Shown here piece after piece: positions 1,682-63,712 of a stretch of 64,000 nucleotides of DNA. The position numbers and the translations under genes were made by a program. The first letter of the stretch is position 1; each line of letters opens with the position of its first letter. Origin of the DNA: Acidobacteriota bacterium (GTDB lineage: Bacteria > Acidobacteriota > Thermoanaerobaculia > Multivoradales > JAGPDF01); the NCBI GenBank assembly GCA_014584695.1, contig JACTMI010000036.1:62001-126000 (forward strand). Reading direction: 5' to 3'. Under the pieces are notes generated by a model. It was not told the origin of the DNA and did no database searches. It saw only the letters and a list, made by a program, of their open reading frames with translations.

Positions 1682-1688
1682 GGACGCC

Positions 1689-2630
1689 ATGCGAATCGCA
1701 AACAGCCGCCGCGCCCATCGGACGACCGGACTCCTGGCCGCCGTTCTGGCTCTCGCCGTCCCCGCGGCGGGGGTCCTGCCGGAGCCCGATCACATCTTCT
1801 ACGGCACGCCCACTCGCGACGGCGAACCGGTGCTCACCGGCGTCGTGTCGGCGCGGCTGGCGGGCGCCACCGAGGCGATCGCCAGCTACGCGCTCGGCTC
1901 TCGCCCCGAGGTGGGCAACCGCTACGTGCTGCGGATTCCGATCGATTCGGTGGACCCGCGGCAACCCGGCCACGCGCGCACCGGCGACGCCGTCCAGTTC
2001 TTCCTCGACGGCGTGCCCTCCGGCAATGGCACCGTCGGCGAGCGCGGGACGGTACAACTGCTGAACGTCGATCCGGCCCAGGGCGGGCTGCCGACGGTCG
2101 CGATCGCCGATGTCTCGCTCTACGAGGGGAACTCCGGTCAGACGCCCTTCGTTTTCACCGTGACGCTCTCGGAAGCGATCGCCGAGGACGTGACCTTCAC
2201 CTGGAGCACCTCCCCGGGAACCGCCCAGGGCGGCATCGACTTCGTCGAGGTACCGCCCGGGACGCCGGCCGTAGTCGCCGCGGGCAATACGTCGACCACG
2301 ATCACGGTGCTCGTCAATGGCGACACGTTCCAGGAGGACAACGAGACCTTCTTCGTCAACCTGGCCAATGTCAGCTCGAACGCCGTGCTGTTCGACCCGC
2401 AGGCGGTCGGCACGATTCTCGACGACGACCGGCCGCCGGCGATCTCGATCGCCGACCTGGCGGTGATCGAGGGCGACTCCGGCAGCAGCGTCGCGACGCT
2501 CTCGCTCTCGCTGACCCGCCCGATCGCGCAGGCGATCACGGTCGGCTGGGCGACGTCGAACGGTACCGCCACCGCCGGTTCGGACTATCAGGCCGGCAGC
2601 GGCGTGGCGGAACTCCATCTCGACGACGAT
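1689..2630 (+). CDS. Secreted Calx-beta protein, N-terminal part of a frameshifted gene
   Basis: This is the 5' part of a gene that continues in another frame from ~2610 to 5541. The ATG at 1689 follows a GAGGA site eight bases after the previous stop. Residues 1-30 form a signal peptide (MRIANSRR followed by the hydrophobic LLAAVLALAVPAAG). Residues ~136-247 are a complete Calx-beta domain: the opening VAIADVSLYEGNSG, the central DNETFFVNL and the closing ILDDD are typical of these calcium-binding beta-sandwich repeats. A second Calx-beta domain starts at ~251 (ISIADLAVIEGDSG) and runs to SDYQAGSGVA at ~306, where sense is lost. Read without correction, this frame runs on in Arg-rich nonsense to a stop at 3111-3113. 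Product: an extracellular adhesion or matrix protein. Confidence 0.75.
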
Positions 2631-2634
2631 TCCG
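2599..2634 (+). other. Frameshift inside the second Calx-beta domain
   Basis: Upstream of here the Calx-beta repeat is read in frame 3 (SDYQAGSGVA). Downstream the same repeat resumes in frame 1 (NSISTTIPVTIFGD, then DDETFFVTLSGP). Skipping one base near 2607-2611 (GGCGG followed by AACTCC) joins the two halves into a normal Calx-beta repeat of near-usual length. A short deletion of 3n+2 bases would do the same. It may be a sequencing or assembly error, or a real disabling mutation. Confidence 0.8.
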
Positions 2635-5541: not shown

Positions 5542-6679
5542 GGGGGAGCGCACGGCGGCCGCGACGAGGGCGCCCGCTCCAGTCGCCTTCGGTTTTCTCG
5601 ACTGCCACGAAGGGGGAGCGCAGCGGCTGACCGTCGCGGCCTGCGAGCGGTTGGATCGCCGCCGCTTCGCGCCGTTCCTCCTCTGCGCGCGCGGCGGCGG
5701 CCGGCTCGCCGCCGACGCGCGGCGGCGCGGGCTCGAAGTGGTCGAGCTCGGACGGCTGCGCCGGCCCTACGATGTGGCGGCCGTCGGGCTCCTGGCGCAC
5801 GAGCTCGAACGCCGCGGCACCCGCATCCTCCATCTGCCGCTCTACAGCCGGGCCAGCCCCTACCTGCGACTGGCGGCGCGGCGGGCAGGGGTCCCCCTGG
5901 TGGTCGCGCACGAGTGGTCGCGGCCGGGCCCGCCGTCCTGGGGCCGGCGCGCGGCGGATTGGTGGCTGCGTCCGGGGACGTGCTTCGTCGCCGCGTCGAC
6001 GGCGCTGCGCCGGGAGCTGGTCGCGTCGGGAGTGCGCCCCGCTGCGGTCGAGGTCGTCCACGCCGGCGTCGACGCACGGCGGTTTGATCCATGGACGCGC
6101 AGCGCGGCACGGCTCGAGCTCGAGCTCGACCCCGCTCGCCCGGTCATTCTGGTTCCCGCCCGGCTCCACCCGGTCAAGGGACACGACGATCTGCTCGCCG
6201 CCCTCCCGGCGATGCTCGCGCGCCGCTGCGATCTGCTCGTGCTCTGCGCCGGCGAGGGGCCGCGGCGCTCGGATCTCGAGGCGCGGGCCGCGCGGCTCGG
6301 CGCCGGCGACGCCGTCCGTTTCCTGGGCCACCGCGAGGACATTCCCCGATTGCTGGCCGCGGCGGACCTGGTCTTGCTGCCGTCGCACGTCGAAGGCCTG
6401 CCGGCGGCCCTGCTCGAGGCGATGGCGGCGCGGCGCGCGGTGGTGGCGACCGCGGTGGGTGGCGTGCCGGAGGCGGTCACGAACGGCGTCGAGGGAACGC
6501 TGGTGCCGCCCGCGCGGCCGGACCGGCTCGCCGCCGCGGTCGACGAGCTGCTGCGGCGACCCGACCTCGCGGCGGCGATGGGCGAGCGGGGTCGCGCGCG
6601 GGTGGAGCGGGAGTTCGGTCTCGACGCCTCGACGCGCCGGCTCGAGGATCTCTATACCCGCTGGCTCGCGGCGCGGTGA
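5498..6679 (+). CDS. GT4 family glycosyltransferase (first of five)
   Basis: A 393-residue GT-B retaining glycosyltransferase that should transfer a sugar from a nucleotide-sugar donor to a lipid-linked acceptor at the cytoplasmic membrane face. The N-terminal Rossmann half opens at ~27 (VAFGFLDCHEGGAQRL). The donor-binding half holds VPARLHPVKGHDDLL, LCAGEGPR and the E-x7-E motif EGLPAALLEAMA near 298. The GTG at 5498 is the only start in this frame that leaves the domain intact; it lies inside the end of the preceding gene, so coupling is possible, but the first ~25 residues are unlike the family and the start is uncertain. Its stop overlaps the next GTG (GTGA), which begins a run of overlapping genes. 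The sugar cannot be told from sequence. Confidence 0.9.
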   Translation: MATSAAGTSWSEGSEGERTAAATRAPAPVAFGFLDCHEGGAQRLTVAACERLDRRRFAPFLLCARGGGRLAADARRRGLEVVELGRLRRPYDVAAVGLLAHELERRGTRILHLPLYSRASPYLRLAARRAGVPLVVAHEWSRPGPPSWGRRAADWWLRPGTCFVAASTALRRELVASGVRPAAVEVVHAGVDARRFDPWTRSAARLELELDPARPVILVPARLHPVKGHDDLLAALPAMLARRCDLLVLCAGEGPRRSDLEARAARLGAGDAVRFLGHREDIPRLLAAADLVLLPSHVEGLPAALLEAMAARRAVVATAVGGVPEAVTNGVEGTLVPPARPDRLAAAVDELLRRPDLAAAMGERGRARVEREFGLDASTRRLEDLYTRWLAAR

Positions 6680-52458: not shown

Positions 52459-52776
52459 GTGGCGGCCGCGCGGGGCGGCTCCCTCAGCGTGGAATCGCCA
52501 CAGTACGTGGCCCTGGCGAGCCCGAGGATCCCTTGCTACGACAACGTTCCCTGCCTGGCATTTCGAGGCGGCGACCGGGTGTTCCTCTATCGTTCGGGGA
52601 GCCTGTACGAGCTGCGCCATCGGGAGACCAGGATCGCCACCAGTCGATTCGTACACGAAGGGGCCGAGCGCCAAGAGGCCATCCAGTCCATCCGGCCTGG
52701 CGAGCAATTCGTGACCCTCGGAGGCGACCTCATGACGATTGCGGTCCCGCTCGAGCCGCGCGCGCGCCACCCCTAG
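52459..52776 (+). CDS. Small unknown protein, possibly the 3' remnant of a longer gene
   Basis: A 105-residue frame from GTG 52459. The protein (YVALASPRIPCYDNVPCLAF; FLYRSGSLYELRHRETRIATS) has two Cys, no signal peptide and no recognised domain. Sensible-looking coding continues upstream in frame to a stop at 52384 (HRLESLDTAVAAARGG spans the GTG) but offers no ATG, GTG or TTG, and there is no ribosome site. It could be a 5'-truncated gene left by a rearrangement, or a false frame. Confidence 0.4.
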   Translation: MAAARGGSLSVESPQYVALASPRIPCYDNVPCLAFRGGDRVFLYRSGSLYELRHRETRIATSRFVHEGAERQEAIQSIRPGEQFVTLGGDLMTIAVPLEPRARHP

Positions 52777-52783
52777 CCCGGCC

Positions 52784-52789
52784 TATGCT
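52784..52789 (+). promoter_or_regulatory. -10-like TATGCT before the first coiled-coil gene
   Basis: TATGCT is followed by a ~21-base leader containing GGGAGGAGG and ATG 52811. Unlike the leaderless starts elsewhere, this one has a strong ribosome site. ATG 52803 (three codons, then TGA) is a possible micro-frame in the leader. Confidence 0.35.
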
Positions 52790-52810
52790 ACTGGGAGGAG
52801 GAATGATCCG

Positions 52811-53323
52811 ATGAAGAGTCTGTTCTCAGCGCTAGCGATACTCGCCTGGGCAAGCGGAGCAGCGGCCCAGGTCTCGGCGCCAGAAGCTACCCTGGTCGAG
52901 GAGATGGCCAGAGCGAGGGTTGCGCTGGAGAACATCGTCACTCTGCTCAAGCAACAGGCTGGAGCACAGGATCTCGATCTGCTGCTCAAGAGGGTGCAGA
53001 TCGCCGCCACTCGCGTGACCTCGGCGGAGAGCGCGCTGCGCGCCGCGCAGACCGACTGGCACGGCCTGGAAGCCGAGAAGAGCGGCGTGGAGCTGCGGCT
53101 CGGAATGCTGAAGCTCCAGGCTGAAGCCGGGGAAGGGGAGGTCCGGCCTCAGTTCGAGGTGATGGCGGAGAACACGGAGACCGAGCGGAAGCGGGTCCTC
53201 CAGCGAATGAGCCAACTCGCGCAGGAGATCACCGTTCGCCAGGCGGAGCTCGACCAACGACACGAAGAGCTCGAGGACTGGCAGCGAGTTCTCGACCGGC
53301 GGCTGGCGAACCTAGCGCCGTGA
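52811..53323 (+). CDS. Exported coiled-coil protein (tandem copy 1)
   Basis: A 170-residue protein with a signal peptide (LFSALAILAWASGAAAQ) and then an almost fully helical, charged region from ~28 to the end: VEEMARARVALENIVTLLKQ, LLLKRVQIAATRVTSAESAL, TETERKRVLQRMSQLAQEI and RQAELDQRHEELEDWQRVLD show heptad spacing. It should form a long periplasmic coiled coil. GGGAGGAGG lies ten bases upstream of ATG 52811. The next gene is a close duplicate. I recognise no named family. Confidence 0.8.
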   Translation: MKSLFSALAILAWASGAAAQVSAPEATLVEEMARARVALENIVTLLKQQAGAQDLDLLLKRVQIAATRVTSAESALRAAQTDWHGLEAEKSGVELRLGMLKLQAEAGEGEVRPQFEVMAENTETERKRVLQRMSQLAQEITVRQAELDQRHEELEDWQRVLDRRLANLAP

Positions 53324-53479
53324 CCGACCTGCTCGTGGTCGAGCCAGTGAGAGACGCTGTTCTGACCCAGGTCCAGGACCACGCCAGCATTTCGTGTGCT
53401 CCGATTCGATGCGAAGGTCCGCTCGGGAGATCGACAGTCGGTTCGTCTTCGCTCTGGCTCACGGACGCCGTTCTCCGAG

Positions 53480-54016
53480 ATGCAGAGGAGTAAGAGTGGT
53501 CTCTTGAGGAGGCTAAGGTCAGCGCTAGCGATCCTCGTCTGGGCGAGCGGAGCGGCGGCCCAGGCCTCGGCGCCTGGAGTCACCCTCGCTGAGGAAATGG
53601 CCAAGGCGCGGGTTGCGCTGGAGAACATCGTCACTGTGCTGGAGCAACGGGCTGGGGCACAGGATCTCGATGTCTTGATGAAGAGAGTGCAGATCGCCGC
53701 CACCCGCCTGACCTCGGTGGAGAGCGCTCTGCGGGCCGCGCAAGCAGACTGGAACGCCCTCGAGACCGAACGGAGTGGTGTAGAGCTGCGGCTCGGGCAG
53801 CTCAGGCTGCGGGCCGAGTCCGGTGGCGAGGGGGTCCGGCCCATGTTCGAGCTGATGGCGGAGAGCACGGAGACCGAGCGCAAGCGGGTCCTCCAGAGGA
53901 TGATCCAGCTCACGCAAGAGATCGCCGCGCGCCGAGCGGAGCTCGACCGACGGCGCGATGAGCTCGCGGATTGGCAGAGAGTCCTCGACCGTCGCCTGGC
54001 AAGTCTCGCGCCATGA
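53480..54016 (+). CDS. Exported coiled-coil protein (tandem copy 2)
   Basis: A 178-residue duplicate of the preceding gene. From SALAILVWASGAAAQ on, the two proteins align without gaps to the common end DRRLA(N/S)LAP, and the DNA keeps long identical runs (GTTGCGCTGGAGAACATCGT in both). The start region differs: copy 1 begins ATGAAGAGTCTG, while here the equivalent bases read GTAAGAGTGGTC, so the reading frame now begins further upstream at ATG 53480 or at TTG 53504, giving a longer basic N terminus before the signal helix. Copy 2 may therefore be expressed or exported less well. A terminator is not evident after it. Confidence 0.75.
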   Translation: MQRSKSGLLRRLRSALAILVWASGAAAQASAPGVTLAEEMAKARVALENIVTVLEQRAGAQDLDVLMKRVQIAATRLTSVESALRAAQADWNALETERSGVELRLGQLRLRAESGGEGVRPMFELMAESTETERKRVLQRMIQLTQEIAARRAELDRRRDELADWQRVLDRRLASLAP

Positions 54017-54435: not shown

Positions 54436-55311
54436 TCAGGGCCTGCACTGGTTGGTGCGAGTCGACAGGAAGAACTGCCCAGAGAGGGGAGTGAGCGGAC
54501 CTGGCAGGTGCGTTGAACCAGTCGCGACTGTGAGCTCCAGACCCCGCCTGTGGGGCTTTTCCCTTATCTGGTCTCTTCTCTCGAGACCCCAGCGTTCGAC
54601 GGCGCTACCCACTCCGACCCGTGAAGCATTCGCTGTTTGCTCTGCTCTTTGCTCTTTGCTCTTTGCTCTTCGCTCTTCGCTCTTCGCTCTCGACTGCGCG
54701 CCGTTCGCGATCCGCCGAAGGCAGCGGCGGTGAACGGCATCCGGCTGGGAATTGGCGGTCGCAGCGAGAGCTGGGATCATCGCCTCGGCGTCGTAGTCGG
54801 CGAGGGCGGCCCGCAGGGCCCCGCGGGCGCGATGGAGGAGGACCTTGGCATTGCCGAGTCCGAGACCAAGGGCGCGTGAGAGGTGGGTCAGGTCGAGGCC
54901 GAGCCAGTAGTAGCCGAGGAGTAGGTCCCGCTGTCTCCGAGGCAGGCCGTCGAGGGCATGGGCCAGGTCGATCCGGGCGGGAACGGACTCGGCCGCGCAG
55001 TCTGCAGGGCCCACGGCGGCGACCGAATCGAGCGGAGCCTCCCGCTTCCCGCGCCGGAACGCCGCTCCGGCCTTGCGTCGAGTCACGACCCGCACCCAGG
55101 CCCCTGGCGTGACGAGCGGCTCACCACTCCTTTGCAACAGGTCGACCATCGCCTCCTGCGCCAGGTCCTCCGCATCCGCATGCGAGAACCCGAAGCGACG
55201 GGCCACCTGGTAGGCGAGCTGACGAAGCTGCCGGATCGAATCGTCGACGAGCGCGGCGCTCGAGCAACCCGGCCGAGAGGGTGGGGAGCGGCGTATCAGG
55301 TTCGCATCCAC
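54436..55311 (-). CDS. Sigma-70-family (ECF-like) RNA polymerase factor with aberrant C-terminal tail
   Basis: Region 2 lies near residues 20-90 (IRQLRQLAYQVARRFGFSHA; AEDLAQEAMVDLLQR; GAWVRVVTRRKAGAAFRRG) and region 4 near 115-170 (LDGLPRRQRDLLLGYYWLG; LSRALGLGLGNAKVLLHRAR). The start is set at GTG 55311 because GGAGG lies eight bases upstream; an in-frame ATG at 55365 would add 18 residues but has no ribosome site. Conserved sequence ends at ~190. The last ~100 residues (SEERRAKSKEQRAE, then Arg-rich noise) are encoded across a 7-bp tandem repeat and look like read-through beyond the original end. It points away from the propeller/Cys-rich cluster and shares its upstream region. Confidence 0.8.
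   Translation of the reverse strand: MDANLIRRSPPSRPGCSSAALVDDSIRQLRQLAYQVARRFGFSHADAEDLAQEAMVDLLQRSGEPLVTPGAWVRVVTRRKAGAAFRRGKREAPLDSVAAVGPADCAAESVPARIDLAHALDGLPRRQRDLLLGYYWLGLDLTHLSRALGLGLGNAKVLLHRARGALRAALADYDAEAMIPALAATANSQPDAVHRRCLRRIANGAQSRAKSEERRAKSKEQRAEQTANASRVGVGSAVERWGLERRDQIREKPHRRGLELTVATGSTHLPGPLTPLSGQFFLSTRTNQCRP
54542..54560 (+). terminator. Small hairpin with T-tract
   Basis: CCCCG, loop CCTG, TGGGG followed by CTTTT forms a five-pair stem with a T-run on the plus strand. It would stop plus-strand transcription from the coiled-coil genes. It lies antisense to the doubtful tail of the sigma-like gene. Confidence 0.4.
54639..54691. repeat. 7-bp tandem repeat (GCTCTTY)6 plus partial units
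   Basis: Six consecutive heptamers run from 54644 to 54685: three GCTCTTT and three GCTCTTC, flanked by GCTCT on both sides. The unit is not a multiple of three, so gain or loss of one copy shifts the frame of the sigma-like gene on the minus strand (read there as RAAGAGC). Confidence 0.9.
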
Positions 55312-55516
55312 AGCGAAGACCTCCAGTCGATCCAGCTGTAACCCAGCGCCCACTTCAGGACACATACCCTAGCAGGAGACTTGCGCGAACAACTCTGGAC
55401 TTCCCGGGCGAGGCGATGAGAATGGGGAGGGGCCGGGGGGGGGGCGAGAGGTTCGCTCGCGCTTTCACCCGCCGGTTCACCGGTTGGCGAGGCGCAGGCA
55501 GCCGGGGAGGTCCACG

Positions 55517-56668
55517 ATGTCGAGCAAGACGGTGGGTTCGATCGGGGCCCTGGTGGCTTGTGCGTTGCTCTGGGCCGGGGCAGCGCCTTCGCTTGCCAGG
55601 GACCGGCTCGAGCTCGTGAAGCGCTTCGACCTCCCGGCGGAGGTTCTGTCTCCGCTCGACGTGCGCTTCAGCGAGCGCGGAACGCTCTTCATCTCGACTC
55701 TCGACGGCAGGGTGCTGGAGCTCGATTTGCGCCCCGGGTTGCCCATCCGCGAGACCTGGCTGCGCTCGGAGCGAGAGGCGGCCGAGCGCGGTGGGAAACG
55801 CAATACCCCGATGCACCTCGCCACCTCCGGATCCTGGCTTCTCTATTCCAACTCCGGTTCGGTTCGGAGCTGGTGGCGATTGGGCTCCGCCGCCTCGGGT
55901 ACCCCCGTGCGAACCGCTCGCAGCGGGCTCGGCCTGACCCACGACATCGACCTGCGAGGCGAAGCCGTGGCTCTCTTGGGCATTCCCGATGGCGAGCTCT
56001 GGGAGCGCGAGGGAAAGCCGTTCCTCTGGCTCTCCGACCTCGGATCGGCGATCGCCGAGTGGGACCCGACCGACTTGCGCGAGGCGGGCACGAACCCGAG
56101 CGGCGCCCGGGTATTCCGGCATCACGGCGAGGCCGCGACGGGATCGGTCCGGTTCCTGGCGAAAGGTGACCTGGTGGTCGCGTTGCCAGCGCTAGGCGTC
56201 TTTCGCGTCTCGGGATCCGGCAAAGTGCTCGAGCATCATGAGCTGAAGGAGCTCGTTCGGGCAGCCCGCGGCTCGGAGCCCGCACCACCAGACGGAGGCG
56301 GCGGCAGCGAGGCGGTTCAGGATGACGCCTCGTTCGACTTGCCCGAAGAGGGCGGCGCTGAACCGCGGGCGGAGGCGCTGTCGGGGCTGACCCTCGTCGA
56401 CGAAGTGCTCCCGCTCGGCAGGTCGGGCGCGCTCGTCTTGCGAGAGCGCACTCGAGGAGGATTCGGCTGGTCGATTCTGACCCTCACGGACCCCCCACGA
56501 CGCCTCGAGGTTCCCGCCCGGGGAGGTAGCAGCGGCGTGAGAGTCCGAGGCGATGTCGATTCGAAAGGGCGCATCGCCTTGCTCCTGGCGGCTCGGCCAC
56601 GAGGCGACTGGCTTGCGCCCGAAGAGCGGGGCGGAGAAGTCCTTCTGCTGACCCTGTCCGAAGAGTGA
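55517..56668 (+). CDS. Exported beta-propeller-like protein (module A)
   Basis: A 383-residue protein with a signal peptide (IGALVACALLWAGAAPSLA). The rest is beta-rich with propeller-like strands: PLDVRFSERGTLFISTLDGRVLEL, GLTHDIDLRGEAVALLGIPDG, VRFLAKGDLVVALPALGVF and LVDEVLPLGRSGALVLRER. A Gly/Glu-rich loop lies near 265-295. It resembles the six-bladed propeller protein at 59475 in size and layout. The start is ATG 55517, with GGGGAGG six bases upstream. It is followed after 71 bases by the Cys-rich peptide gene and then by a large carboxypeptidase-regulatory-like protein, all in one direction. The ligand is unknown. Confidence 0.78.
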   Translation: MSSKTVGSIGALVACALLWAGAAPSLARDRLELVKRFDLPAEVLSPLDVRFSERGTLFISTLDGRVLELDLRPGLPIRETWLRSEREAAERGGKRNTPMHLATSGSWLLYSNSGSVRSWWRLGSAASGTPVRTARSGLGLTHDIDLRGEAVALLGIPDGELWEREGKPFLWLSDLGSAIAEWDPTDLREAGTNPSGARVFRHHGEAATGSVRFLAKGDLVVALPALGVFRVSGSGKVLEHHELKELVRAARGSEPAPPDGGGGSEAVQDDASFDLPEEGGAEPRAEALSGLTLVDEVLPLGRSGALVLRERTRGGFGWSILTLTDPPRRLEVPARGGSSGVRVRGDVDSKGRIALLLAARPRGDWLAPEERGGEVLLLTLSEE

Positions 56669-56739
56669 CACGCGCTCGACGAGTCGACGCGATCCGACGA
56701 ACAGGTGCATTCACCGATTGTCATGGGAGGTACAGCGAA

Positions 56740-57084
56740 ATGAAGCGATCGAGAGCGGTGGAGGCGCTACGATGGGTTGCGGCCGCGCTGGTGCTGGCCC
56801 TGGGCGTTGCGGGTCCGGTTGGAGCAGGTGCCGACTGGCAGTGTCAAGGGCAGGCGTGCGCAGGAACGCCGTGCGGCAACACCAGTTGCTGGATGGTCTC
56901 CAACGCGACTGCCTCTTGGTCGACCGATGACTGTGTCTACCAGTACGGCTCCAGCTGCTATCGGTGCCTCTACAACTGCGGAGGGACACTGTGGAACTGC
57001 GGTGAGACCCAAGTTGGAGACAGAAAGACCTGCGGCGGCTACGGCAGCTTCTACGATTATCTCCTCCAGCACCCCAACCCGTAG
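56740..57084 (+). CDS. Small secreted cysteine-rich protein
   Basis: A 114-residue protein with a clear signal peptide (WVAAALVLALGVAGPVGAGA). The mature part of ~84 residues has ten Cys in the order C-x4-C-x4-C-x4-C-x14-C-x7-C-x2-C-x3-C-x6-C-x10-C and many Gly, Tyr, Trp and Ser residues, enough for five disulfides in the periplasm or outside. GGGAGG lies nine bases before ATG 56740. I recognise no family. Small Cys-rich peptides beside six-bladed propeller genes are known from Bacteroidetes (NVEALA-type), which is a possible functional parallel but not homology. It is not an obvious RiPP precursor, because no maturation enzyme is adjacent. Confidence 0.82.
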   Translation: MKRSRAVEALRWVAAALVLALGVAGPVGAGADWQCQGQACAGTPCGNTSCWMVSNATASWSTDDCVYQYGSSCYRCLYNCGGTLWNCGETQVGDRKTCGGYGSFYDYLLQHPNP

Positions 57085-57125
57085 CCTCGCGGCATCGGGG
57101 CCGGTCGGCCAGTTCGGCGTGCCCG

Positions 57126-59159
57126 ATGCCGGATGAGGCCGGCGAGCCAGGCCCGCGGCTGCTGGTGCCCGAGCTGCGATCCTGCGTGCTCTGCATCTTG
57201 GCGCTCTGCGCACCGACTATTGCGGCCAATGCCGAGACGCAGCAAGTTCGCGTCGAGGTCGCTGGCGGAGGGGCGCCGGAGTCGGTGCGCATCGAATCGA
57301 GGGCGGGTGAGGCTCGGCAGGCGATCGAGGTGCCGTTGGTGGCGGGCGCTGGAGTCGGCGAGCTGGAGCTCGGCGGAGGCGGGCCCTGGGTCCTGTCGGC
57401 CGACGCGGCCGGGTACTGGGCGGAGGAGATCGAGCTCCGCGCGGGTCAGGGACCGGAGCTCCCGGTGTTGCGCCTCTGGCCGGCGAGCATGGCGCGGGGA
57501 GTCGTCAGCTGGCCGAGGAACGTCGTCGGCCCCGAGCGGGTGCGGCTGACGGTCGATCCGATGCCGGAGCCCGGCGAGCGGAGAGGACAACCCCGCCGTG
57601 CCAGCGTCGAGTGCCCAGTAGCGCAAGGAGGAGCCTTGCGCTGCGCGCTCCCCTCCGGGCAGTGGCACTTGAGGATCGACGCGGCCGGCTTCGCGCCGGT
57701 GTTTCGATGGGGCCTGGGGTTTCGAGCCGGTGAAGGGATCGATCTGGGAAATGTCCTTCTCAGGCCTGGCGCGTCGCTCCTCGGGCGTGTCGTCGACGAG
57801 GGCGGTCTCGCGCTGGGCGGCGCCCGGGTCGTCCTGAGCCCGTTGGTCGCCGGCCGGCCGGAACGCGCCGGCCCACCACCGGCCGAAGCGCTGCGCAACG
57901 TGGCCGTTGATTCCAATCCCTGGGGGTACTTCCATTTCGACGGCCTCGCTCCGGGCTCGTACTCGCTCCGGGCCTCGAGCGAAGGCCTGCTGCCGGCCGG
58001 GAGCTCCCAGATCGATTTGGGCGAATCGCAGGCGGTGGAGCTCGCGCAACCGCTGGTGCTCGCGCGCCCGCTCCGCCTCGGGGTCGAGATCGCCCTCACC
58101 GGAGCGACTTCGGCCATGCGGCTCGTCGTCCAGATCGTCGCGGAGACGGAGCAGGGGCGCCTCGAGCCCGTGGCACGGTCGGAAGCCGTCGACGGCAGCT
58201 GGCTCTCGCCACCCCTCGCGCCTGGGCTCTACTCCGTTCAGGTCTTGGATCCTCGAGGAGCCTCGCTCGCCTGGGAGGAGATCGACCTGCGCGCCGACCA
58301 AGTCCTCGAGCTCGAGCTCGCGCTCGTGCTGGTCACGGGCGAAGTTCGGCTCGGCGAGGAGCCGATCTCGGCGACCCTCTTCTTCGGCGGCATCGGCGGC
58401 GGCACCCGAGTCCCGGTCGAGGCCGACGAGGGCCGGTTCTCCACGGTCCTGCCGCGCGGCGGAGAGTGGACCGTGGACGTCCTCGCGGTGGATCCTCCGA
58501 TCCATGCGCGGGACGTCGCCGTGGAGGTCGCCCCCGATCGCCGCACGCACGAGGCCGAGGTCGAGATCGTGCTGCCCGACACCCTGGTCAGCGGCGTGGT
58601 GGTCGACGCGGAAGAGCGCCCCGTGGCGGGGGCGGACATCCGGTTGACGACCCCCTCGGGCAGAGGATTCAGCCGCACCAAGAGCCGCCCGGACGGCGGG
58701 TTCGAGTTGCGCGGCCAGGCCCCGGGAACCTACGCGCTGCAGGCTGAACTCGAGGGCGAGACCTCCGAAGTGGTCCACCTGGTGCTCGCCGAGGAGCATC
58801 CGCGGCGCGACCTGCGGCTGGTGCTGGGCCGCTCGGTCGTGCTGCGCGGCAGGGTCAGTGGGCCGCTGGGCGGCATCGGGTCGGCCTTTCTCCTCGCGCT
58901 GCCCTTCGACGCCGCCGGCAGCATGGCCGGCGCGACATTCCTGGACGCGACGGCGAACCTGGAGGGTGAGTTCGAGATCCGCTTCCCGCCGGCAACGGCG
59001 CGGGCCGATCTCTACGTCCTGGCTCCAGGCCACCTGTTCCAGGTCGAGCGCGTCGCGGTGGGCGAGGCGGAGCCGGTCGTTCTCTCCCTCGCGCAGTCGG
59101 CGGGCGGCAGTCTCCGCCTCCCGTCGAGCGCTCCGGCCGGCAAGCAGAGGATCATCTAG
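57126..59159 (+). CDS. Exported carboxypeptidase-regulatory-like repeat protein, cut by an in-frame amber codon (module A)
   Basis: A 677-residue protein with an N-terminal hydrophobic signal (LRSCVLCILALCAPTIAANA). It is a chain of beta-sandwich repeats of the carboxypeptidase-regulatory / CnaB type: LLGRVVDEGGLALGGARVVL, WGYFHFDGLAPGSYSLRAS, VSGVVVDAEERPVAGADIRL, GGFELRGQAPGTYALQAEL and VLRGRVSGPLGG. Such chains form stalks on secreted proteins. It ends abruptly at TAG 59157-59159 after KQRII, and the same frame continues at once from 59160 to 59414 with the missing C-terminal repeat. The joined length, ~762 residues, matches the paralogue at 60632 (745). So this is a nonsense-mutated gene, a read-through case or a sequence error. 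Confidence 0.82.
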   Translation: MPDEAGEPGPRLLVPELRSCVLCILALCAPTIAANAETQQVRVEVAGGGAPESVRIESRAGEARQAIEVPLVAGAGVGELELGGGGPWVLSADAAGYWAEEIELRAGQGPELPVLRLWPASMARGVVSWPRNVVGPERVRLTVDPMPEPGERRGQPRRASVECPVAQGGALRCALPSGQWHLRIDAAGFAPVFRWGLGFRAGEGIDLGNVLLRPGASLLGRVVDEGGLALGGARVVLSPLVAGRPERAGPPPAEALRNVAVDSNPWGYFHFDGLAPGSYSLRASSEGLLPAGSSQIDLGESQAVELAQPLVLARPLRLGVEIALTGATSAMRLVVQIVAETEQGRLEPVARSEAVDGSWLSPPLAPGLYSVQVLDPRGASLAWEEIDLRADQVLELELALVLVTGEVRLGEEPISATLFFGGIGGGTRVPVEADEGRFSTVLPRGGEWTVDVLAVDPPIHARDVAVEVAPDRRTHEAEVEIVLPDTLVSGVVVDAEERPVAGADIRLTTPSGRGFSRTKSRPDGGFELRGQAPGTYALQAELEGETSEVVHLVLAEEHPRRDLRLVLGRSVVLRGRVSGPLGGIGSAFLLALPFDAAGSMAGATFLDATANLEGEFEIRFPPATARADLYVLAPGHLFQVERVAVGEAEPVVLSLAQSAGGSLRLPSSAPAGKQRII

Positions 59160-59414
59160 ATGGACGGCCGCCTCGTTCCGGTGCCATTTCTCGAGATCTG
59201 GGTGCGCCTCGCGAGCGCCACGGCAGCCAACGATAGCGACTTGGTGGTCCCCTTCTTGCGCGCCGGTCGCTACGCCTACTGCGAGATCGACGATGCCGAG
59301 GTTCAACTCGTGCTCGAGAACCGGGCGGTACCTTCCGGTCGCGCGTGCAGCCATGGCACACTGGCGGAAGGAGGCGAGCTCAGGCTCGAGCTCGAGGAAC
59401 GCGGGTCGCGCTAG
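59160..59414 (+). CDS. C-terminal remainder of the amber-interrupted repeat protein
   Basis: An 84-residue frame beginning with ATG directly after the TAG of the preceding gene, in the same frame. Its sequence (PVPFLEIWVRLASA; LVVPFLRAGRYAYCEI; GGELRLELEERG) corresponds to the last repeat of the paralogue at 60632-62869 (VPVLAIRVSTLE; LTAGRYELELE; AGDELTLRFP). It has no ribosome site of its own and no signal peptide, so it is best seen as part of the upstream gene and not as an independent protein. It could be made by reinitiation, since stop and start codons are adjacent. Confidence 0.7.
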   Translation: MDGRLVPVPFLEIWVRLASATAANDSDLVVPFLRAGRYAYCEIDDAEVQLVLENRAVPSGRACSHGTLAEGGELRLELEERGSR

Positions 59415-59474
59415 CGGAGGACCTCGCGAGAGCAGGCTCCGCTGCGGCATCCATCCCTCCGCGGAGGTCAGAAC

Positions 59475-60644
59475 GTGTCAAGAACGACCGGGATGTGCCG
59501 GCCGATCGGTGGGAGCGCGAGGCTCGCGCTCCTGGCGTTGCTCTGGACCGGAGCTCTCTCGGCGTGCGGCTCCACGGGCCCGCCGCCGGCGGCGCCCGAG
59601 GCGATTTGCCGGCGGGTCCAGCTCGGTCGCGAGGTGACTTCGCCCAACGGGTTGCAGGTCCTGCGCTCGGGCGACTTCCTCGTGGCGAGCCCGCTGGAGG
59701 GGACGCTGACGCGGTTCGATGCCGAAGGCAGGGAACTGTGGACGCGACACGGCGAGGTCGAGCCACCCGGGAACTTCGAGAGTCCCGCCGGCATCACGAT
59801 GGACTCCGCGACCGGGGACCTATTGATTCTGGAGCGGCTCCACAATTTCTATCTGGCGGATCCGGAAGGGCGTGTCGTTCAGAGGGTGTCCTTCGAGGAG
59901 TCGTCGGCGGAAGGTGGCCACTTCGGCTTCGTGTCAGCCGTCTTCGCCAAGGAGAAGAGCGAGATGCGGGCGCTGGCGCTCCTCCATTCCGAAGGGGCGG
60001 GCGAGCTGGTGGCGGGATTGGCCCGTGTGCGCGTCGATGGCTCGGGCTGGAGTGAAACCGCGGCGACGTTTCCGCTGTCCAAACCGCAGCTCGACTCGCT
60101 CTCACTCGATCTGCGCATGGTCGCGCCGTACCAGAATGGCCTCGCGGTGCTGCTGATCGGGACGGGCGGTTCGGAGCACGAGGTCCGACTGATCACCGAC
60201 GCGGCCAGCCGCTCAGTGCCGCTCGTGATCGAAGAGCTCGCTCCGTACCCCTCGGAACTGCGCCTGGGCCAGAGCACGATGGGTGCGGCTCATCGGCAAC
60301 TGCGGCGGCTTCGGCTGCCGGTCGGTATCTACGGGGATCGGACCACGCTCTTCGTGCTCGTCGCGAGTCCTGGGGCGGCGGCCACCGGCCGGGTGTGGGA
60401 GCTGCTCCCGATCGACCTCGAAACCGGCGCGGCCAAAGCGAGGTATCGCTTGCCGACGGGCGCGGACGAGGTCGGAATCTCCGCGGGTGAGAGCCACTGG
60501 ATCGTGCTCGAGAAGCGGGTGCTCGGAGTCGAGGGTCTCGTGCGGTCGACGCGCGCGCTGGTGGTACCGGCGGACTGGTTCCACCGACCGGACTCGCCCC
60601 TGGTCGTCTCGCCCGGCGGGAGCCCGGCAACTTGCGTGCCTTGA
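59475..60644 (+). CDS. Six-bladed beta-propeller-like lipoprotein (module B)
   Basis: A 389-residue lipoprotein: the signal LALLALLWTGALSAC has a lipobox with the acylated Cys near 31. The mature protein reads as an NHL/six-bladed propeller: SPNGLQVLRSGDFLVASPLEG, FDAEGRELWTRHGEVEPPGNF, SPAGITMDSATGDLLILER and NFYLADPEGRVVQRVSF, each strand set ending in a hydrophobic beta strand. GTG 59475 has GGAGG seven bases upstream. Its stop overlaps the start of the next repeat protein by 13 bases. It is the module B counterpart of the 55517 protein and may be the cell-attached receptor or scaffold of the pair. Confidence 0.83.
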   Translation: MSRTTGMCRPIGGSARLALLALLWTGALSACGSTGPPPAAPEAICRRVQLGREVTSPNGLQVLRSGDFLVASPLEGTLTRFDAEGRELWTRHGEVEPPGNFESPAGITMDSATGDLLILERLHNFYLADPEGRVVQRVSFEESSAEGGHFGFVSAVFAKEKSEMRALALLHSEGAGELVAGLARVRVDGSGWSETAATFPLSKPQLDSLSLDLRMVAPYQNGLAVLLIGTGGSEHEVRLITDAASRSVPLVIEELAPYPSELRLGQSTMGAAHRQLRRLRLPVGIYGDRTTLFVLVASPGAAATGRVWELLPIDLETGAAKARYRLPTGADEVGISAGESHWIVLEKRVLGVEGLVRSTRALVVPADWFHRPDSPLVVSPGGSPATCVP

Positions 60645-62869
60645 CGCTGCCGCTACTCGCGCTCGCGATCCTGCTGGGCTCGGTCGAGGCGCACCCCGCG
60701 ACCGCGGAAATGGTGGACGCGAGCACTCCGTCACCGGACTGCCCCGCCCTTTCCGGCCGGGTCGTCGATTCGAGCGATCGGCCGATCGCCGACGCCGAAG
60801 TGACGGTCGGCTCGTTCGCTGGACGGACGGATCCCGACGGGCGTTTCGAGATCGGCGCGGAAGCGCCGGGACCCGAGCTGCGGGTCGACGCGACCGGCTT
60901 CGGGCCTTGGCGGCGTTGGGTCACCTGTGCCGAGCGAGACGAAGATCTGCGGATCGTCCTGGAGCCGCGCGAGCTGCTGCGGGGCCGGCTGCTCGGCGCG
61001 GACGACACGCCGGTCGAAAAGGCGACGCTGCTTCTGGAGTCGAGCCCGCAGCCGGGTCAGCTCCGGCGGACGCCGATCCAGCTCGAGCTGCGCGAGGGCG
61101 GGTTTCGGGCGGTGCTGCCCGCGCCGGGGGCTTACGACGTCTCCTTCCTGGTGCCGGGGTGGCGCCGGCTGCTGGCCGGCAACCACTTCGTCTCCCCGGC
61201 AACCGAGATCGACCTCGGCTCGCTGGTGCTCGACCCGGGGGCGGTGATCGAAGCGTCCTTCTTCGATCGGGAGACGGCCGCGCCGGTCGCCGGCGTGCGG
61301 GCGGAGGTCCTCGCGGCGGGGCACGGCCGGTTCTGGTTCCTGGCCCGGGGCGAGAGCTTCCGGGGCGCTAGCGGCGCGACCGGTGAGCTGCGCTTGGGCG
61401 GGCTGCCGGCCGGCCGCTACGCGCTGCGCTACGCCGCGCCGGGCGGGCAGCAGGGCCAGCGGATGGTCAGCCTCGCCGAAGGGGAGCGAGTCGACTTCGG
61501 CGCCACCTGGGTGGGCGCGGGAACGGACCTCGTGGGCCGGCTCTCGTTCCGCGACGGCACGCCCGCGCGCGGGCAGGTGGTCGAGCTCCACGATCCGGCG
61601 GCGGAGATCACGGTCTCCTTCGCCGAGACGGTGAGCGACCAGGAGGGTCGGTTCCGGATTGCCGCGCTCGAGCCCGGCGAGTACCTGCTGCGGGTGGGCA
61701 AGAAGGCGCTGCTCCACTCGGCGCTGGTCGAAGTCGCGCCGCGCGCCGGCGAGCTCGAGATCGAGCTCGCGTCGGTGCGCGTGCGAGGACGGGCCACTCG
61801 CGACGGGGCTCCGCTCGCCGACGCGCTGCTGATCCTCGAGCACACGCAGGATCGGTCCGCTTCCCGGCAGAAGCTGGTGGTCGTCGAAGGGGAGGGAAAC
61901 CGGAGCCGGCGGAGCGTCTTCGGCGCGGGTTCGACCCGCTGCGAAGTGACGACCGGAGCCGCGGGAGAGCTGACCTGCGGCGCGATCCTGCCGGGAGAGG
62001 TCGAGGTCACCTGGGTCGCGAACCTCTCCGAGGTCGTGCGCCGGATCGCCGTGCCGGACGCCGAGGCGGCGCAGTTCGAGATCGACTTCGGTGGCGCGGA
62101 GCTCGAGGGGGTCGTGCTCGCGCCGCCGGGGAGCTCGACGGACGGCGCCACGGCGACGGCTCTCGACCTCGATGGGCGCAGCGTCGCGCGCTCGCTCGTC
62201 GAGGAGGGCGGACGGTTCACGCTGCGGCAGCTGCCGGAGCAGCCGCTACGCCTTCAGGTCCAGGTTCCGGGTGGGGCCCGTGGCGAGACCGGACCGGTGA
62301 GGCCGAGCGAGGTCGCGGGGCCGCAGTTCGTCGAGCTGGTGGAGGCGGCCCGGCGCGACGTCGAAGTGACGTTGCGCGGCTCGGAGGAGTACGGAACGCC
62401 GGAGCCCGAGCTGGTCGCCCTTCTGCCCTCGGGGCTCCTGGTGACGGGTGCGGCGCTGCTCGGAGGCAGCGGCGTGCTGCGCGACCTCGCGCCGGGGAGC
62501 TACTGGCTGGCGTGGAGCGATCCGCTCTACGGCGCCGGCACGCGCAGCCTCGAAGTGACGGCGGGGAGCTCGCCGCTCCGAATGACCGTGCCGCTCGAGG
62601 GGGCCGGCTCGCTCGCCGTCGCTTGCGACGCGATACGCCACGCCGGGGTTCCCGTTCTGGCGATTCGCGTCTCGACGCTCGAGCGGGGCGATGTTTCGGC
62701 GTTCCTGCCCGGCGTCGTCCCCGGCCTGCGCTTCTCCGAGTCCTGCCGCCTCGAGCTCGGCCGCTTGACCGCCGGCCGCTACGAGCTCGAGCTCGAAGTC
62801 CCGGGCGAACGCTCGCGCCGCTCCTTCTCGATCCGCGCCGGCGACGAGCTGACGCTACGGTTCCCGTAG
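60632..62869 (+). CDS. Exported carboxypeptidase-regulatory-like repeat protein (module B)
   Basis: A 745-residue protein with a signal peptide (LTLPLLALAILLGSVEA). About eight beta-sandwich repeats follow: LSGRVVDSSDRPIADAEVTV, TDPDGRFEIGAEAPG, LRGRLLGADDTPVEKATLLL, GELRLGGLPAGRYALRYA, LVGRLSFRDGTPARGQVVEL and GRFRIAALEPGEYLLRVG, the carboxypeptidase-regulatory / CnaB pattern. It is the intact paralogue of the amber-cut protein at 57126. The start is TTG 60632, with GGGAG about nine bases upstream, and it overlaps the lipoprotein gene by 13 bases, so translation is coupled. No protease or other enzyme domain is attached, which suggests a structural stalk or adhesive role. Confidence 0.83.
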   Translation: MRALTLPLLALAILLGSVEAHPATAEMVDASTPSPDCPALSGRVVDSSDRPIADAEVTVGSFAGRTDPDGRFEIGAEAPGPELRVDATGFGPWRRWVTCAERDEDLRIVLEPRELLRGRLLGADDTPVEKATLLLESSPQPGQLRRTPIQLELREGGFRAVLPAPGAYDVSFLVPGWRRLLAGNHFVSPATEIDLGSLVLDPGAVIEASFFDRETAAPVAGVRAEVLAAGHGRFWFLARGESFRGASGATGELRLGGLPAGRYALRYAAPGGQQGQRMVSLAEGERVDFGATWVGAGTDLVGRLSFRDGTPARGQVVELHDPAAEITVSFAETVSDQEGRFRIAALEPGEYLLRVGKKALLHSALVEVAPRAGELEIELASVRVRGRATRDGAPLADALLILEHTQDRSASRQKLVVVEGEGNRSRRSVFGAGSTRCEVTTGAAGELTCGAILPGEVEVTWVANLSEVVRRIAVPDAEAAQFEIDFGGAELEGVVLAPPGSSTDGATATALDLDGRSVARSLVEEGGRFTLRQLPEQPLRLQVQVPGGARGETGPVRPSEVAGPQFVELVEAARRDVEVTLRGSEEYGTPEPELVALLPSGLLVTGAALLGGSGVLRDLAPGSYWLAWSDPLYGAGTRSLEVTAGSSPLRMTVPLEGAGSLAVACDAIRHAGVPVLAIRVSTLERGDVSAFLPGVVPGLRFSESCRLELGRLTAGRYELELEVPGERSRRSFSIRAGDELTLRFP

Positions 62870-62901: not shown

Positions 62902-63480
62902 TCAGCGAACAGCGCCGAGCTGCTTCTCGAGGAGAGGAAGCAGATCGCTCTGCGCGAGCGCCGCCTCGAGGGTGGCCAGGGTGGCTCGAATCTGTTCGAT
63001 TTGCAGCTCGCGTCCTCGGGTCGCGATGATCCCCCGGACATCCTCGAGGTCCTTGGGTCGGCCGGCGAGAATCTTCGTCACGACCAAGTCCTCCGGCGAG
63101 ATCACTGGAATCTCGCGATGACCGATCTTCACCCGCAGGCTGCGGTCCAGGAACTCCTCCTCCAGGCCGGGGCCGGCGAGGACGACGTCGACCGGGAACT
63201 GGGTCGGTGCGTGGGTGAAGGGGAGGACCCGTGTCCGCGCGACGAAGGCCTCGACACCGTCGCGGATTCGCAGCTGGAAGCCGGCCCGAGCGAGCTCGTC
63301 GACGAGCTCGGGGACTCGCGCGGGGTCGAGATCGACGGTCACGTCGATGTCAGCGCTCGTTCTGGGCCGCCCCCAGATGACCACGGCCTGCGCTCCGAAG
63401 AGGTACCAGGCGAGCCCGAGGCGCGCGAACTCGCCCGCGAGCGAGTCGAGAACCTCAGCGATGGGTGGCGGCGGCGACAC
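62902..63480 (-). CDS. Nucleotidyltransferase-fold protein (AbiEii/MNT-like), possible toxin
   Basis: A 192-residue protein with the nucleotidyltransferase core LGLAWYLFGAQAVVIWG followed by RTSADIDVTVDLDP near 35-50: G-A-Q stands in place of G-S, and D-I-D-V is the metal-binding pair. VDVVLAGPG near 90 supplies the third acid, and ISPEDLVVTKILAGRPKDLEDV near 130 is the C-terminal segment typical of AbiEii-like and DUF6036-type NTases. Start GTG 63480 is inside the preceding small gene (26-base overlap), as is common for toxin-antitoxin pairs; longer frames upstream are noise. It may be the toxin of a type IV-like pair or a lone tRNA/protein nucleotidyltransferase. Confidence 0.8.
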   Translation of the reverse strand: MSPPPPIAEVLDSLAGEFARLGLAWYLFGAQAVVIWGRPRTSADIDVTVDLDPARVPELVDELARAGFQLRIRDGVEAFVARTRVLPFTHAPTQFPVDVVLAGPGLEEEFLDRSLRVKIGHREIPVISPEDLVVTKILAGRPKDLEDVRGIIATRGRELQIEQIRATLATLEAALAQSDLLPLLEKQLGAVR

Positions 63481-63712
63481 GGCGGAGAAGCTCCGAGAGC
63501 GCGGTGTGGGCTTCGAGGTCCTCGCGCCGGTCGCGCTCCGAGGGCCAGTCGGGCCGGAGCTCTCGAACGCCCCGCCGGAGGCTGTCGGCGACGGCCAGCG
63601 CCTGCTCGGCGCTCGTCGACCGTCGACGCGCTGCCCAGTGCTCGAGCTTGGACCTCTCCACCGCGCCCCAGTCCCGGTCCAGGTACGCACGAATCGCCGC
63701 CCGATCGATCAC
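63455..63712 (-). CDS. Small helical protein paired with the nucleotidyltransferase, possible antitoxin
   Basis: An 85-residue, highly charged, helical protein (MIDRAAIRAYLDRDWGAVER; ALAVADSLRRGVRELRPDWP; DREDLEAH-like ERDRREDLEAHTALSELL). The end overlaps the NTase start by 26 bases, so the two are translationally coupled, with the small gene first as in classic toxin-antitoxin operons. GTG 63712 has a TAGACT box six bases upstream and no ribosome site. I do not recognise the family; the antitoxin idea rests on size and gene order. Confidence 0.72.
   Translation of the reverse strand: MIDRAAIRAYLDRDWGAVERSKLEHWAARRRSTSAEQALAVADSLRRGVRELRPDWPSERDRREDLEAHTALSELLRRVAAATHR

What the first reader, a model, noticed from the sequence alone, without database searches (positions are those of the whole stretch)
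54436..62869. Duplicated secreted module: propeller + (Cys-rich peptide) + carboxypeptidase-regulatory-like stalk, with a divergent sigma factor
Module A is an exported propeller (55517), a ten-cysteine secreted peptide (56740) and a ~762-residue beta-sandwich stalk (57126-59414). Module B is a propeller lipoprotein (59475) and a 745-residue paralogous stalk (60632), with coupled translation. A sigma-70-like factor is divergent from module A and shares its upstream region. No enzymes are present. Propellers next to small Cys-rich peptides are known in Bacteroidetes (NVEALA/BF2867 type), but the stalk protein and the sigma factor are a different set. This is my best candidate for an undescribed surface or signalling system.
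Basis: partly seen in the sequence, partly recalled or inferred. Interest (0 to 1): 0.75.

Follow-up and report, generated by a model that had tools for sequence, protein, structure and literature searches.

The report
Peptide, propeller and stalk gene cassette
Bacteria of one little-studied class of Acidobacteriota often carry, side by side, genes for a propeller-shaped protein, a long beta-domain stalk and a small cysteine-rich exported peptide; the searches made here found no description of this set, and what it does is unknown.

Summary
The genes are real, with corrections. Stalk A is cut by an in-frame TAG at 59157, before its last domain. A third stalk with its own Cys-rich peptide lies just past the window's end. 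The sigma factor is a genuine ECF factor but probably no component: in 61 loci only one other match, 5.7 kb from its module. Six named relatives are Acidobacteriota, four titled Thermoanaerobaculia or Thermoanaerobaculum.

Of 63 propellers in fetched loci, 44 have a stalk downstream. A small exported Cys-rich ORF sits beside 24 of 30 type II (propA-like) and 8 of 33 type I propellers, against 9 of 240 control windows. A peptide profile gave 36 whole-genome matches: 34 within 700 bp of a propeller, one at 723 bp, one beside a stalk; 24 of the 36 were in the profile.

The window's peptide is a divergent member, supported by position and only weakly by sequence. Best reading: an exported complex in which a stalk presents a propeller and the peptide is its cognate small subunit. 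The cassette is well supported; the mechanism is inferred.

The parts
55517..56668 (+). Propeller A (type II), 383 aa, signal peptide, predicted NHL-like propeller
   Evidence: ORF; type II profile 378 bits, itself in the profile; model pLDDT 78, pTM 0.82; best VIA matches are NHL propellers, e.g. 1q7f Z 23.2, rmsd 3.2, 257 aligned; no Pfam or NCBIfam family
56740..57084 (+). Small exported Cys-rich peptide, 114 aa, between propeller A and stalk A
   Evidence: ORF read; signal peptide and ten Cys seen directly; core CVYQYGSSCYRC; a profile of three G012 peptides gives 13.0 bits, reached by 0 of 2000 full and 1 of 2000 Cys-fixed shuffles; not recognised by a family profile built without it (-4.2 bits)
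57126..59159 (+). Stalk A, 677 aa up to an in-frame TAG (59157-59159); CarboxypepD_reg repeats
   Evidence: Pfam PF13620 105.8 bits; stalk profile crosses the TAG
59160..59414 (+). Continuation of the stalk A frame after the TAG, 84 aa, equivalent to the last domain of related stalks; would need re-initiation at the adjacent ATG, or is a relic
   Evidence: in frame with stalk A; matches the end of stalk C (E 5.8e-4)
59475..60644 (+). Propeller B (type I), 389 aa, lipoprotein signal (LSAC)
   Evidence: ORF; type I profile 306 bits, itself in the profile; homologous to type II at profile level, E 8.7e-8
60632..62869 (+). Stalk B, 745 aa, CarboxypepD_reg repeats; start overlaps the propB stop
   Evidence: PF13620 139.8 bits, 4 stretches; stalk profile 720 bits, itself in the profile; overlap 13 bases, or 4 at a later TTG
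54436..55365 (-). ECF sigma factor, divergent from module A; a neighbour, probably not a component
   Evidence: one other match in 61 loci, 5.7 kb from its module

Best explanation
Shown: the region belongs to a class-wide family of cassettes: a propeller, a long stalk of CarboxypepD_reg-type beta-sandwich domains downstream, and, with type II propellers above all, a small peptide built on a recurring Cys framework (C-x3-4-G-x2-C-x2-C in most, plus further Cys). The parts, where read, begin with export signals (by eye). Inferred: the three proteins leave the cytoplasm and assemble. The stalk acts as a spacer that holds the propeller away from the cell, the propeller is the recognition head, and the disulfide-rich peptide is its cognate small subunit, either an adaptor between propeller and stalk or a detachable ligand. 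In this genome there are three units: A (propeller, peptide, stalk; stalk cut by a stop), B (propeller and stalk only) and C (peptide and stalk, outside the window). The nearby sigma factor, and the MauE and thioredoxin proteins beside unit C, are optional helpers at most.
For: Pairing: of 63 propellers (score at least 60 bits) in the fetched loci, 21 of 30 type II and 23 of 33 type I have a stalk downstream on the same strand. Part of the loci were chosen for stalk hits. The 20 loci were taken from propeller rows (after I had seen the stalk rows); of their 23 propellers 17 have a stalk and 19 a peptide (counted by hand; L162, at 49 bits, was below the bar). In 24 of 40 adjacent pairs a possible stalk start lies within -20 to +10 bases of the propeller stop, 14 of them at exactly -4 (the script took the start codon nearest to -4, so this leans that way). 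Peptide: beside 24 of 30 type II propellers against 9 of 240 overlapping control windows and 1 of 30 antisense windows (the rule was written after peptides had been seen). Whole-genome profile search: 36 matches in 26 of 118 genomes, 34 within 700 bp of a propeller, one at 723 bp, one beside a stalk. Of the 36, 24 were in the profile; of the other 12, ten lie within 700 bp, and 11 come from one genus. Propeller and peptide distances correlate over 19 chosen modules (Mantel r 0.77, 0 of 5000 permutations as high). The propeller model resembles NHL binding heads, among them the M. tuberculosis PknD sensor (1rwi Z 21.3, rmsd 3.0, 240 aligned). One contig of G029 has four type II propellers in a row with Cys-rich ORFs between or beside them. 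Peptide C overlaps the start of stalk C by 4 bases.
Against: No contact between the three proteins was tested. The distance correlation can arise from shared ancestry of the loci and is raised by near-identical pairs among the 19. The window's own peptide is recognised only weakly by sequence. Nine of 30 type II propellers have no stalk in reach (one of them at a contig edge), among them all three of G012, which do have peptides. The four G029 propellers share three ORFs, one of which lacks the core motif. Unit B has no peptide; 25 of 33 type I propellers lack one, and some of the 8 counted are probably chance ORFs. No peptide was found beside the propellers of G003 and G007 of the window's own family. 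Stalk A is broken here. No surface anchor was identified on the stalks.
Confidence: 0.5

Rival explanations
1. The peptide is a secreted effector, such as a bacteriocin or signalling peptide, and the propeller and stalk are its receptor, carrier or self-protection.
For: Small, exported, Cys-rich, very divergent outside the Cys framework (mean column identity 27 %); found repeated together with propellers in G029.
Against: No transporter, maturation enzyme or immunity gene recurs among the gene calls within 5 kb of modules by the criterion (3 or more genomes, 2 or more outside genus g6); those calls miss some genes. Coupling is to the propeller and stalk, which are far larger than a usual immunity protein.
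Confidence: 0.25
2. An enzyme of the methylamine or quinohaemoprotein amine dehydrogenase style: propeller as heavy chain, Cys-rich peptide as small chain, MauE and thioredoxin as helpers.
For: Propeller plus small disulfide-rich chain; a MauE-family protein (PF07291, 53.4 bits, cut-off 27) and a thioredoxin beside unit C; in five type I loci a short protein with a CxxC or single Cys between propeller and stalk.
Against: No Pfam match of propellers or peptides to these enzymes. Several family peptides hold no Trp, e.g. those of L143 and L148, so a Trp-derived cofactor cannot be general. VIA matches are NHL type. MauE does not recur by the criterion. The short Cys proteins match no Pfam family (4 of the 5 tested), no solved chain and not the thioredoxin profile.
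Confidence: 0.07
3. An envelope or matrix structural unit without recognition role: propeller and stalk as scaffolds, peptide as a cross-linking small protein.
For: Parts exported; stalk matches are common in the class (72 of 118 genomes at E 1e-30), in more genomes than propellers (36 type II and 25 type I).
Against: Tight linkage and correlated divergence of propeller and peptide would not be needed for a generic scaffold.
Confidence: 0.18

Closest known systems
Bacteroidetes six-bladed propeller (DUF5128, PF17170) with NVEALA peptide (PF14055); the pairing is recalled, not checked
   Same: An exported propeller beside a small exported Cys-rich peptide. One of 13 type I propellers touches PF17170 (E 0.0081). 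Both families ring in the control genome Bacteroides ihuae.
   Different: Neither family is found in this genome at E 0.01; none of 22 peptides hits NVEALA at E 0.1; the stalk partner is additional. No paper held mentions NVEALA or DUF5128.
Streptomyces umbrella toxin particles (UmbA, UmbB, UmbC); PMC13274773, passages seen
   Same: Separate exported polypeptides for a recognition head (some UmbA proteins carry beta-propeller lectins, six-bladed families among them), an adaptor (UmbB) and a long carrier (UmbC). A likeness of working principle only.
   Different: No trypsin-like domain on the window's propellers and no toxin domain on its stalks was matched by Pfam, nor on 25 type II propellers; the stalk is made of CarboxypepD_reg domains; other phylum.
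Methylamine dehydrogenase cluster (mauB, mauA, mauD, mauE); gene roles recalled
   Same: Propeller plus small disulfide-rich chain; MauE and thioredoxin close to unit C.
   Different: Peptides without Trp exist; VIA fold matches are NHL type; no family match; MauE not recurrent by the criterion.

Membership tests
NVEALA peptides (PF14055) | Match to the family profile | tested here: not met
   0 matches in the own genome at E 0.01; none of 22 peptides hits it at E 0.1
DUF5128 six-bladed propellers (PF17170) | Match to the family profile | tested here: not met
   Neither window propeller matches at E 1; 1 of 13 type I members at E 0.0081 and 0 of 25 type II at E 0.01; own genome 0
NHL-type propeller fold | Overall fold of propeller A | tested here: met
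   Model pTM 0.82; the top 16 VIA rows are NHL domains and six-bladed designs, Z 21.5-23.2, rmsd 2.7-3.5, 240-259 aligned. Predicted model only; Foldseek's own top rows by E-value are mostly WD40-type proteins with TM about 0.45, an NHL domain third at 0.51. The type I profile also finds TRIM NHL domains, E 5.1e-12
NHL-type propeller fold | Six blades | tested here: inconclusive
   Blades were not counted on the model; suggested by the VIA rows only
CarboxypepD_reg proteins (PF13620) | Domain score above curated cut-off | tested here: met
   Stalk A 105.8, stalk B 139.8 bits, cut-off 32.3; stalk C 87.5
Methylamine dehydrogenase | Conserved Trp pair in the small chain for the quinone cofactor (recalled) | tested here: not met
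   Peptides of L143 and L148 contain no Trp
Methylamine dehydrogenase | Heavy-chain propeller of seven blades (recalled) | tested here: inconclusive
   Blades not counted; absence from the list is not exclusion
Umbrella toxins | Trypsin-like domain on the head protein and a toxin domain on the stalk protein | tested here: not met
   No such Pfam match on propellers A and B or stalks A and B at E 1, nor on 25 type II propellers at E 0.01
Umbrella toxins | Small adaptor joining head and stalk | not testable with these tools
   No complex prediction is offered
ECF sigma factors | Match to the superfamily above cut-off | tested here: met
   TIGR02937 54.9 bits, cut-off 42.9
Peptide family of this cassette | Window peptide recognised by a profile of the other members | tested here: inconclusive
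   -4.2 bits with the wide profile, 46 of 1000 full and 125 of 1000 Cys-fixed shuffles as high; 13.0 bits with the G012 subgroup profile, 0 of 2000 and 1 of 2000 shuffles as high

The most novel reading that the evidence does not exclude
The cassettes encode modular recognition particles of a diderm phylum: each stalk carries an exchangeable propeller head joined through a cognate, fast-evolving disulfide-rich peptide, and tandem propeller-peptide sets (as in G029) diversify the target range, a counterpart in principle to umbrella particles built from unrelated parts.
Probability: 0.2. Interest if true: 0.85.

Novelty: new variant of a known kind. Interest (0 to 1): 0.6.

Why it matters
It would add a three-part exported assembly with an unnamed peptide family to a class of Acidobacteriota about which the papers searched here say little at this level. 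The peptides escape annotation easily because they are short, divergent and odd in composition; my own gene finder missed the window's peptide too. Their link to propellers gives a handle for finding them and a concrete complex to test. Matched propeller-peptide sets, some in tandem, make co-evolution of a head and a small subunit directly testable.

Tried and rejected
Sigma factor as a conserved part: no sigma cluster recurs among gene calls; the protein search found nothing, but its gene calls lack even the window's own sigma gene; repeated as a translated search over 61 loci, it finds itself and one match in L058, 5.7 kb from that module. Rejected as a component. Amine dehydrogenase: kept only as a low rival (peptides without Trp). 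Short Cys proteins of type I modules as thioredoxins: no Pfam (4 of 5 tested), no solved relative, no match to the thioredoxin profile; left open. Peptide fold: model pLDDT 78, pTM 0.57, no Foldseek match at E 0.001 or better. Peptides A and C of this genome align no better than Cys-fixed shuffles (699 of 1000 as high), so their kinship rests on position and type only. Single-sequence search with the window peptide: 1 weak hit besides itself in 118 genomes, misleadingly negative; the family appeared only after looking beside propellers. No peptide was found beside the propellers of G003 and G007. Of the 26 sequences in the peptide profile, those of G093 and of G047 (L067) were not recovered at E 1e-3. 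The methylamine dehydrogenase heavy chain is absent from the 50 rows, which excludes nothing. The profile of all 15 chosen type II propellers was too divergent for the pattern scan.

The statement that nothing was found in print rests on (NVEALA: 0 papers; combinations: 0; DUF5128: 0; 4 papers; passages of two seen; the other two by listing only); open-licence papers only. Also seen: passages of PMC13083261 (a lanthipeptide cluster in this class, different), term search without hits in PMC11245096, PMC11062931 by listing only, the listing for Thermoanaerobaculia (15 of 84 papers).
Full report
What is there. The window is G000:C10:62001-126000 of a 4.35 Mb genome in 48 contigs. Inside the given coordinates are an ECF sigma factor on the minus strand and, on the plus strand, propeller A, a 114-residue exported ORF with ten Cys in its mature part, stalk A, propeller B and stalk B. 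Two corrections matter. Stalk A ends at an in-frame TAG at 59157-59159; the frame runs on for 84 residues that match the end of the related stalk C, and the stalk profile crosses the same TAG. So stalk A is truncated, split by re-initiation, or an assembly error; this cannot be told here. Second, a third stalk lies 0.7 kb past the window's end on the other strand (L003 2712-5051). An exported Cys-rich ORF (L003 5048-5314) runs directly into it, its stop overlapping the stalk start by four bases, and divergent from these lie a MauE-family protein and a thioredoxin. Stalk A is closer to stalk C (2e-37) than to stalk B (2e-7).

Who carries it. Six loci from named genomes, found by one pattern scan of a large genome collection, are all Acidobacteriota; four of the six titles say Thermoanaerobaculia or Thermoanaerobaculum. 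In a draw of 396 genomes of the phylum, 18 have the type II propeller at E 1e-15 and all 18 belong to the window's class (five candidates scored per genome, and the answer does not say how many of the 396 lie outside the class). The window's nearest relatives carry the parts unevenly: of three genomes of the same genus, G001 has a type I propeller, G003 a type II one, G002 neither.

Propeller and stalk. Single-sequence searches showed propeller B and stalk B hits lying side by side in many genomes. Profiles were built for two propeller types, II (propA-like, A2) and I (propB-like, A3), and for the stalk (A4). Among 118 genomes, the own one included, type II occurs in 36, type I in 25 and the stalk at E 1e-30 in 72 (seven stalk candidates scored per genome). 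In the fetched loci, 21 of 30 type II and 23 of 33 type I propellers of at least 60 bits have a stalk downstream on the same strand. The loci were partly chosen for stalk hits, which favours pairs. The 20 loci were taken from propeller rows, though with the stalk rows already in view; 17 of their 23 propellers have a stalk (counted by hand). Among type I hits, 22 of 24 with over 200 bits have a stalk, against 1 of 9 weaker ones (counted). In 24 of 40 adjacent pairs a possible stalk start lies within -20 to +10 bases of the propeller stop, 14 at exactly -4; the script took the start codon nearest to -4, which leans towards this. The two propeller types are homologous.

The peptide. Searching with the window peptide alone found nothing useful. 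Looking beside propellers revealed small exported Cys-rich ORFs next to most type II propellers. With a rule written after that look (signal-like start, at least four Cys after it, a CxxC, under 230 residues), 24 of 30 type II and 8 of 33 type I propellers have one, against 9 of 240 overlapping 2-kb windows elsewhere in the loci and 1 of 30 antisense windows. The L055 peptide was missed by the rule but seen. The four G029 propellers share three ORFs, one without the core motif; two short ORFs counted for type I (in L067 and L165) are probably chance. The common core, C-x3-4-G-x2-C-x2-C, is present in 24 of the 26 aligned cores; the other two come from G012. A profile of the cores, run over 118 whole genomes, gave 36 matches at E 1e-3 in 26 genomes; 34 lie within 700 bp of a propeller on the same strand, one at 723 bp and one beside a stalk. 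Of the 36, 24 were in the profile. Of the other 12, ten lie within 700 bp of a propeller, and 11 of the 12 come from genus g6, close to sequences in the profile, so they are a mild test. The profile sees a peptide beside 33 of the 69 type II rows, so it misses many or they are absent. Many loci belong to genus g6 and are not independent; by genus, type II occurs in 12 of 61 and the peptide in 11 of 61.

Does the window peptide belong? Position says yes: it lies between propeller and stalk, as in G005 of the same family (L147). Sequence says weakly yes. A wide profile built without it scores it at -4.2 bits, a score reached by 46 of 1000 full and 125 of 1000 Cys-fixed shuffles. A profile of the three G012 peptides scores it at 13.0 bits, reached by 0 of 2000 full shuffles and 1 of 2000 that keep the Cys in place. 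Peptides A and C of this genome do not align beyond chance.

Extra parts. In five type I loci (L058, L063, L067, L168, L169) a protein of about 160-190 residues with a CxxC or a single Cys sits between propeller and stalk. Four of the five were scanned and match no Pfam family; the profile matches no solved chain. Calling it thioredoxin-like would be a guess. The thioredoxin near stalk C also has relatives near stalks of genus g6. By the criterion neither recurs widely.

The sigma factor. Its conserved part was searched as translation in 61 loci: it finds itself and one match, in L058, 5.7 kb from that module. L143 has an ECF factor of another family upstream (PF07638). So sigma factors can be near such cassettes, but this one is not a shared component.

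Folds. Propeller A is predicted with pLDDT 78 and pTM 0.82. The best VIA matches are NHL propellers and six-bladed designs (Brat 1q7f Z 23.2, rmsd 3.2, 257 aligned; PknD sensor Z 21.3); Foldseek's own ranking puts mostly WD40-type proteins first, at TM about 0.45, so the blade number is not settled. The L143 peptide is predicted as a small all-beta unit (pLDDT 78, pTM 0.57) with no convincing solved match.

How it may work. Shown: linkage, order, overlap of genes, domain types; export signals by eye. Inferred: co-assembly outside the cytoplasm, with the stalk as spacer, propeller as head and peptide as small subunit. Correlated divergence of propeller and peptide over 19 chosen modules (r 0.77, 0 of 5000 permutations) fits a matched pair, but shared ancestry alone could give it. 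Umbrella particles of Streptomyces show that head, adaptor and stalk can be separate exported polypeptides (passages); this is a likeness, not kinship.

Novelty. No Pfam or NCBIfam model names the window's peptide or propellers, and family members only touch models weakly. The Bacteroidetes propeller and NVEALA families, the nearest known kind by recall, are not met. The paper searches made here found no description of the cassette (open-licence papers only).

Noticed in passing
window 54629-54690: Heptamer array GCTCTTT (about 9 copies) running through the 3' part of the sigma-factor ORF, where the coding character is weak; the sigma gene may really end earlier or be disturbed.
   Followed up: partly
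window 52739-53323 and 53396-54016 (+): Two tandem exported ORFs with very similar, probably coiled-coil sequences just upstream of the region; only chance-level Pfam matches.
   Followed up: no
window 62902-63690 and 63455-63712 (-): A nucleotidyltransferase (DUF6036 / AbiEii type) with a small partner ORF, perhaps a type IV toxin-antitoxin pair, right after stalk B.
   Followed up: no
L003 8786-10069 and 10501-11559 (-), outside the window: A LuxC-type acyl-CoA reductase and a LuxE-type acyl-protein synthetase close together.
   Followed up: no
L151 (G029:C179), 176-6080 (-): Four type II propellers in a row with Cys-rich exported ORFs between or beside them; no stalk seen before the contig's near end.
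   Followed up: partly
L003 5048-5314 (-), outside the window: Second exported Cys-rich peptide of this genome, overlapping the start of stalk C by four bases; not alignable with the window peptide beyond chance.
   Followed up: partly
L058, L063, L067, L168, L169: Family of proteins of about 160-190 residues with a conserved Cys between type I propeller and stalk; no family match where tested.
   Followed up: partly
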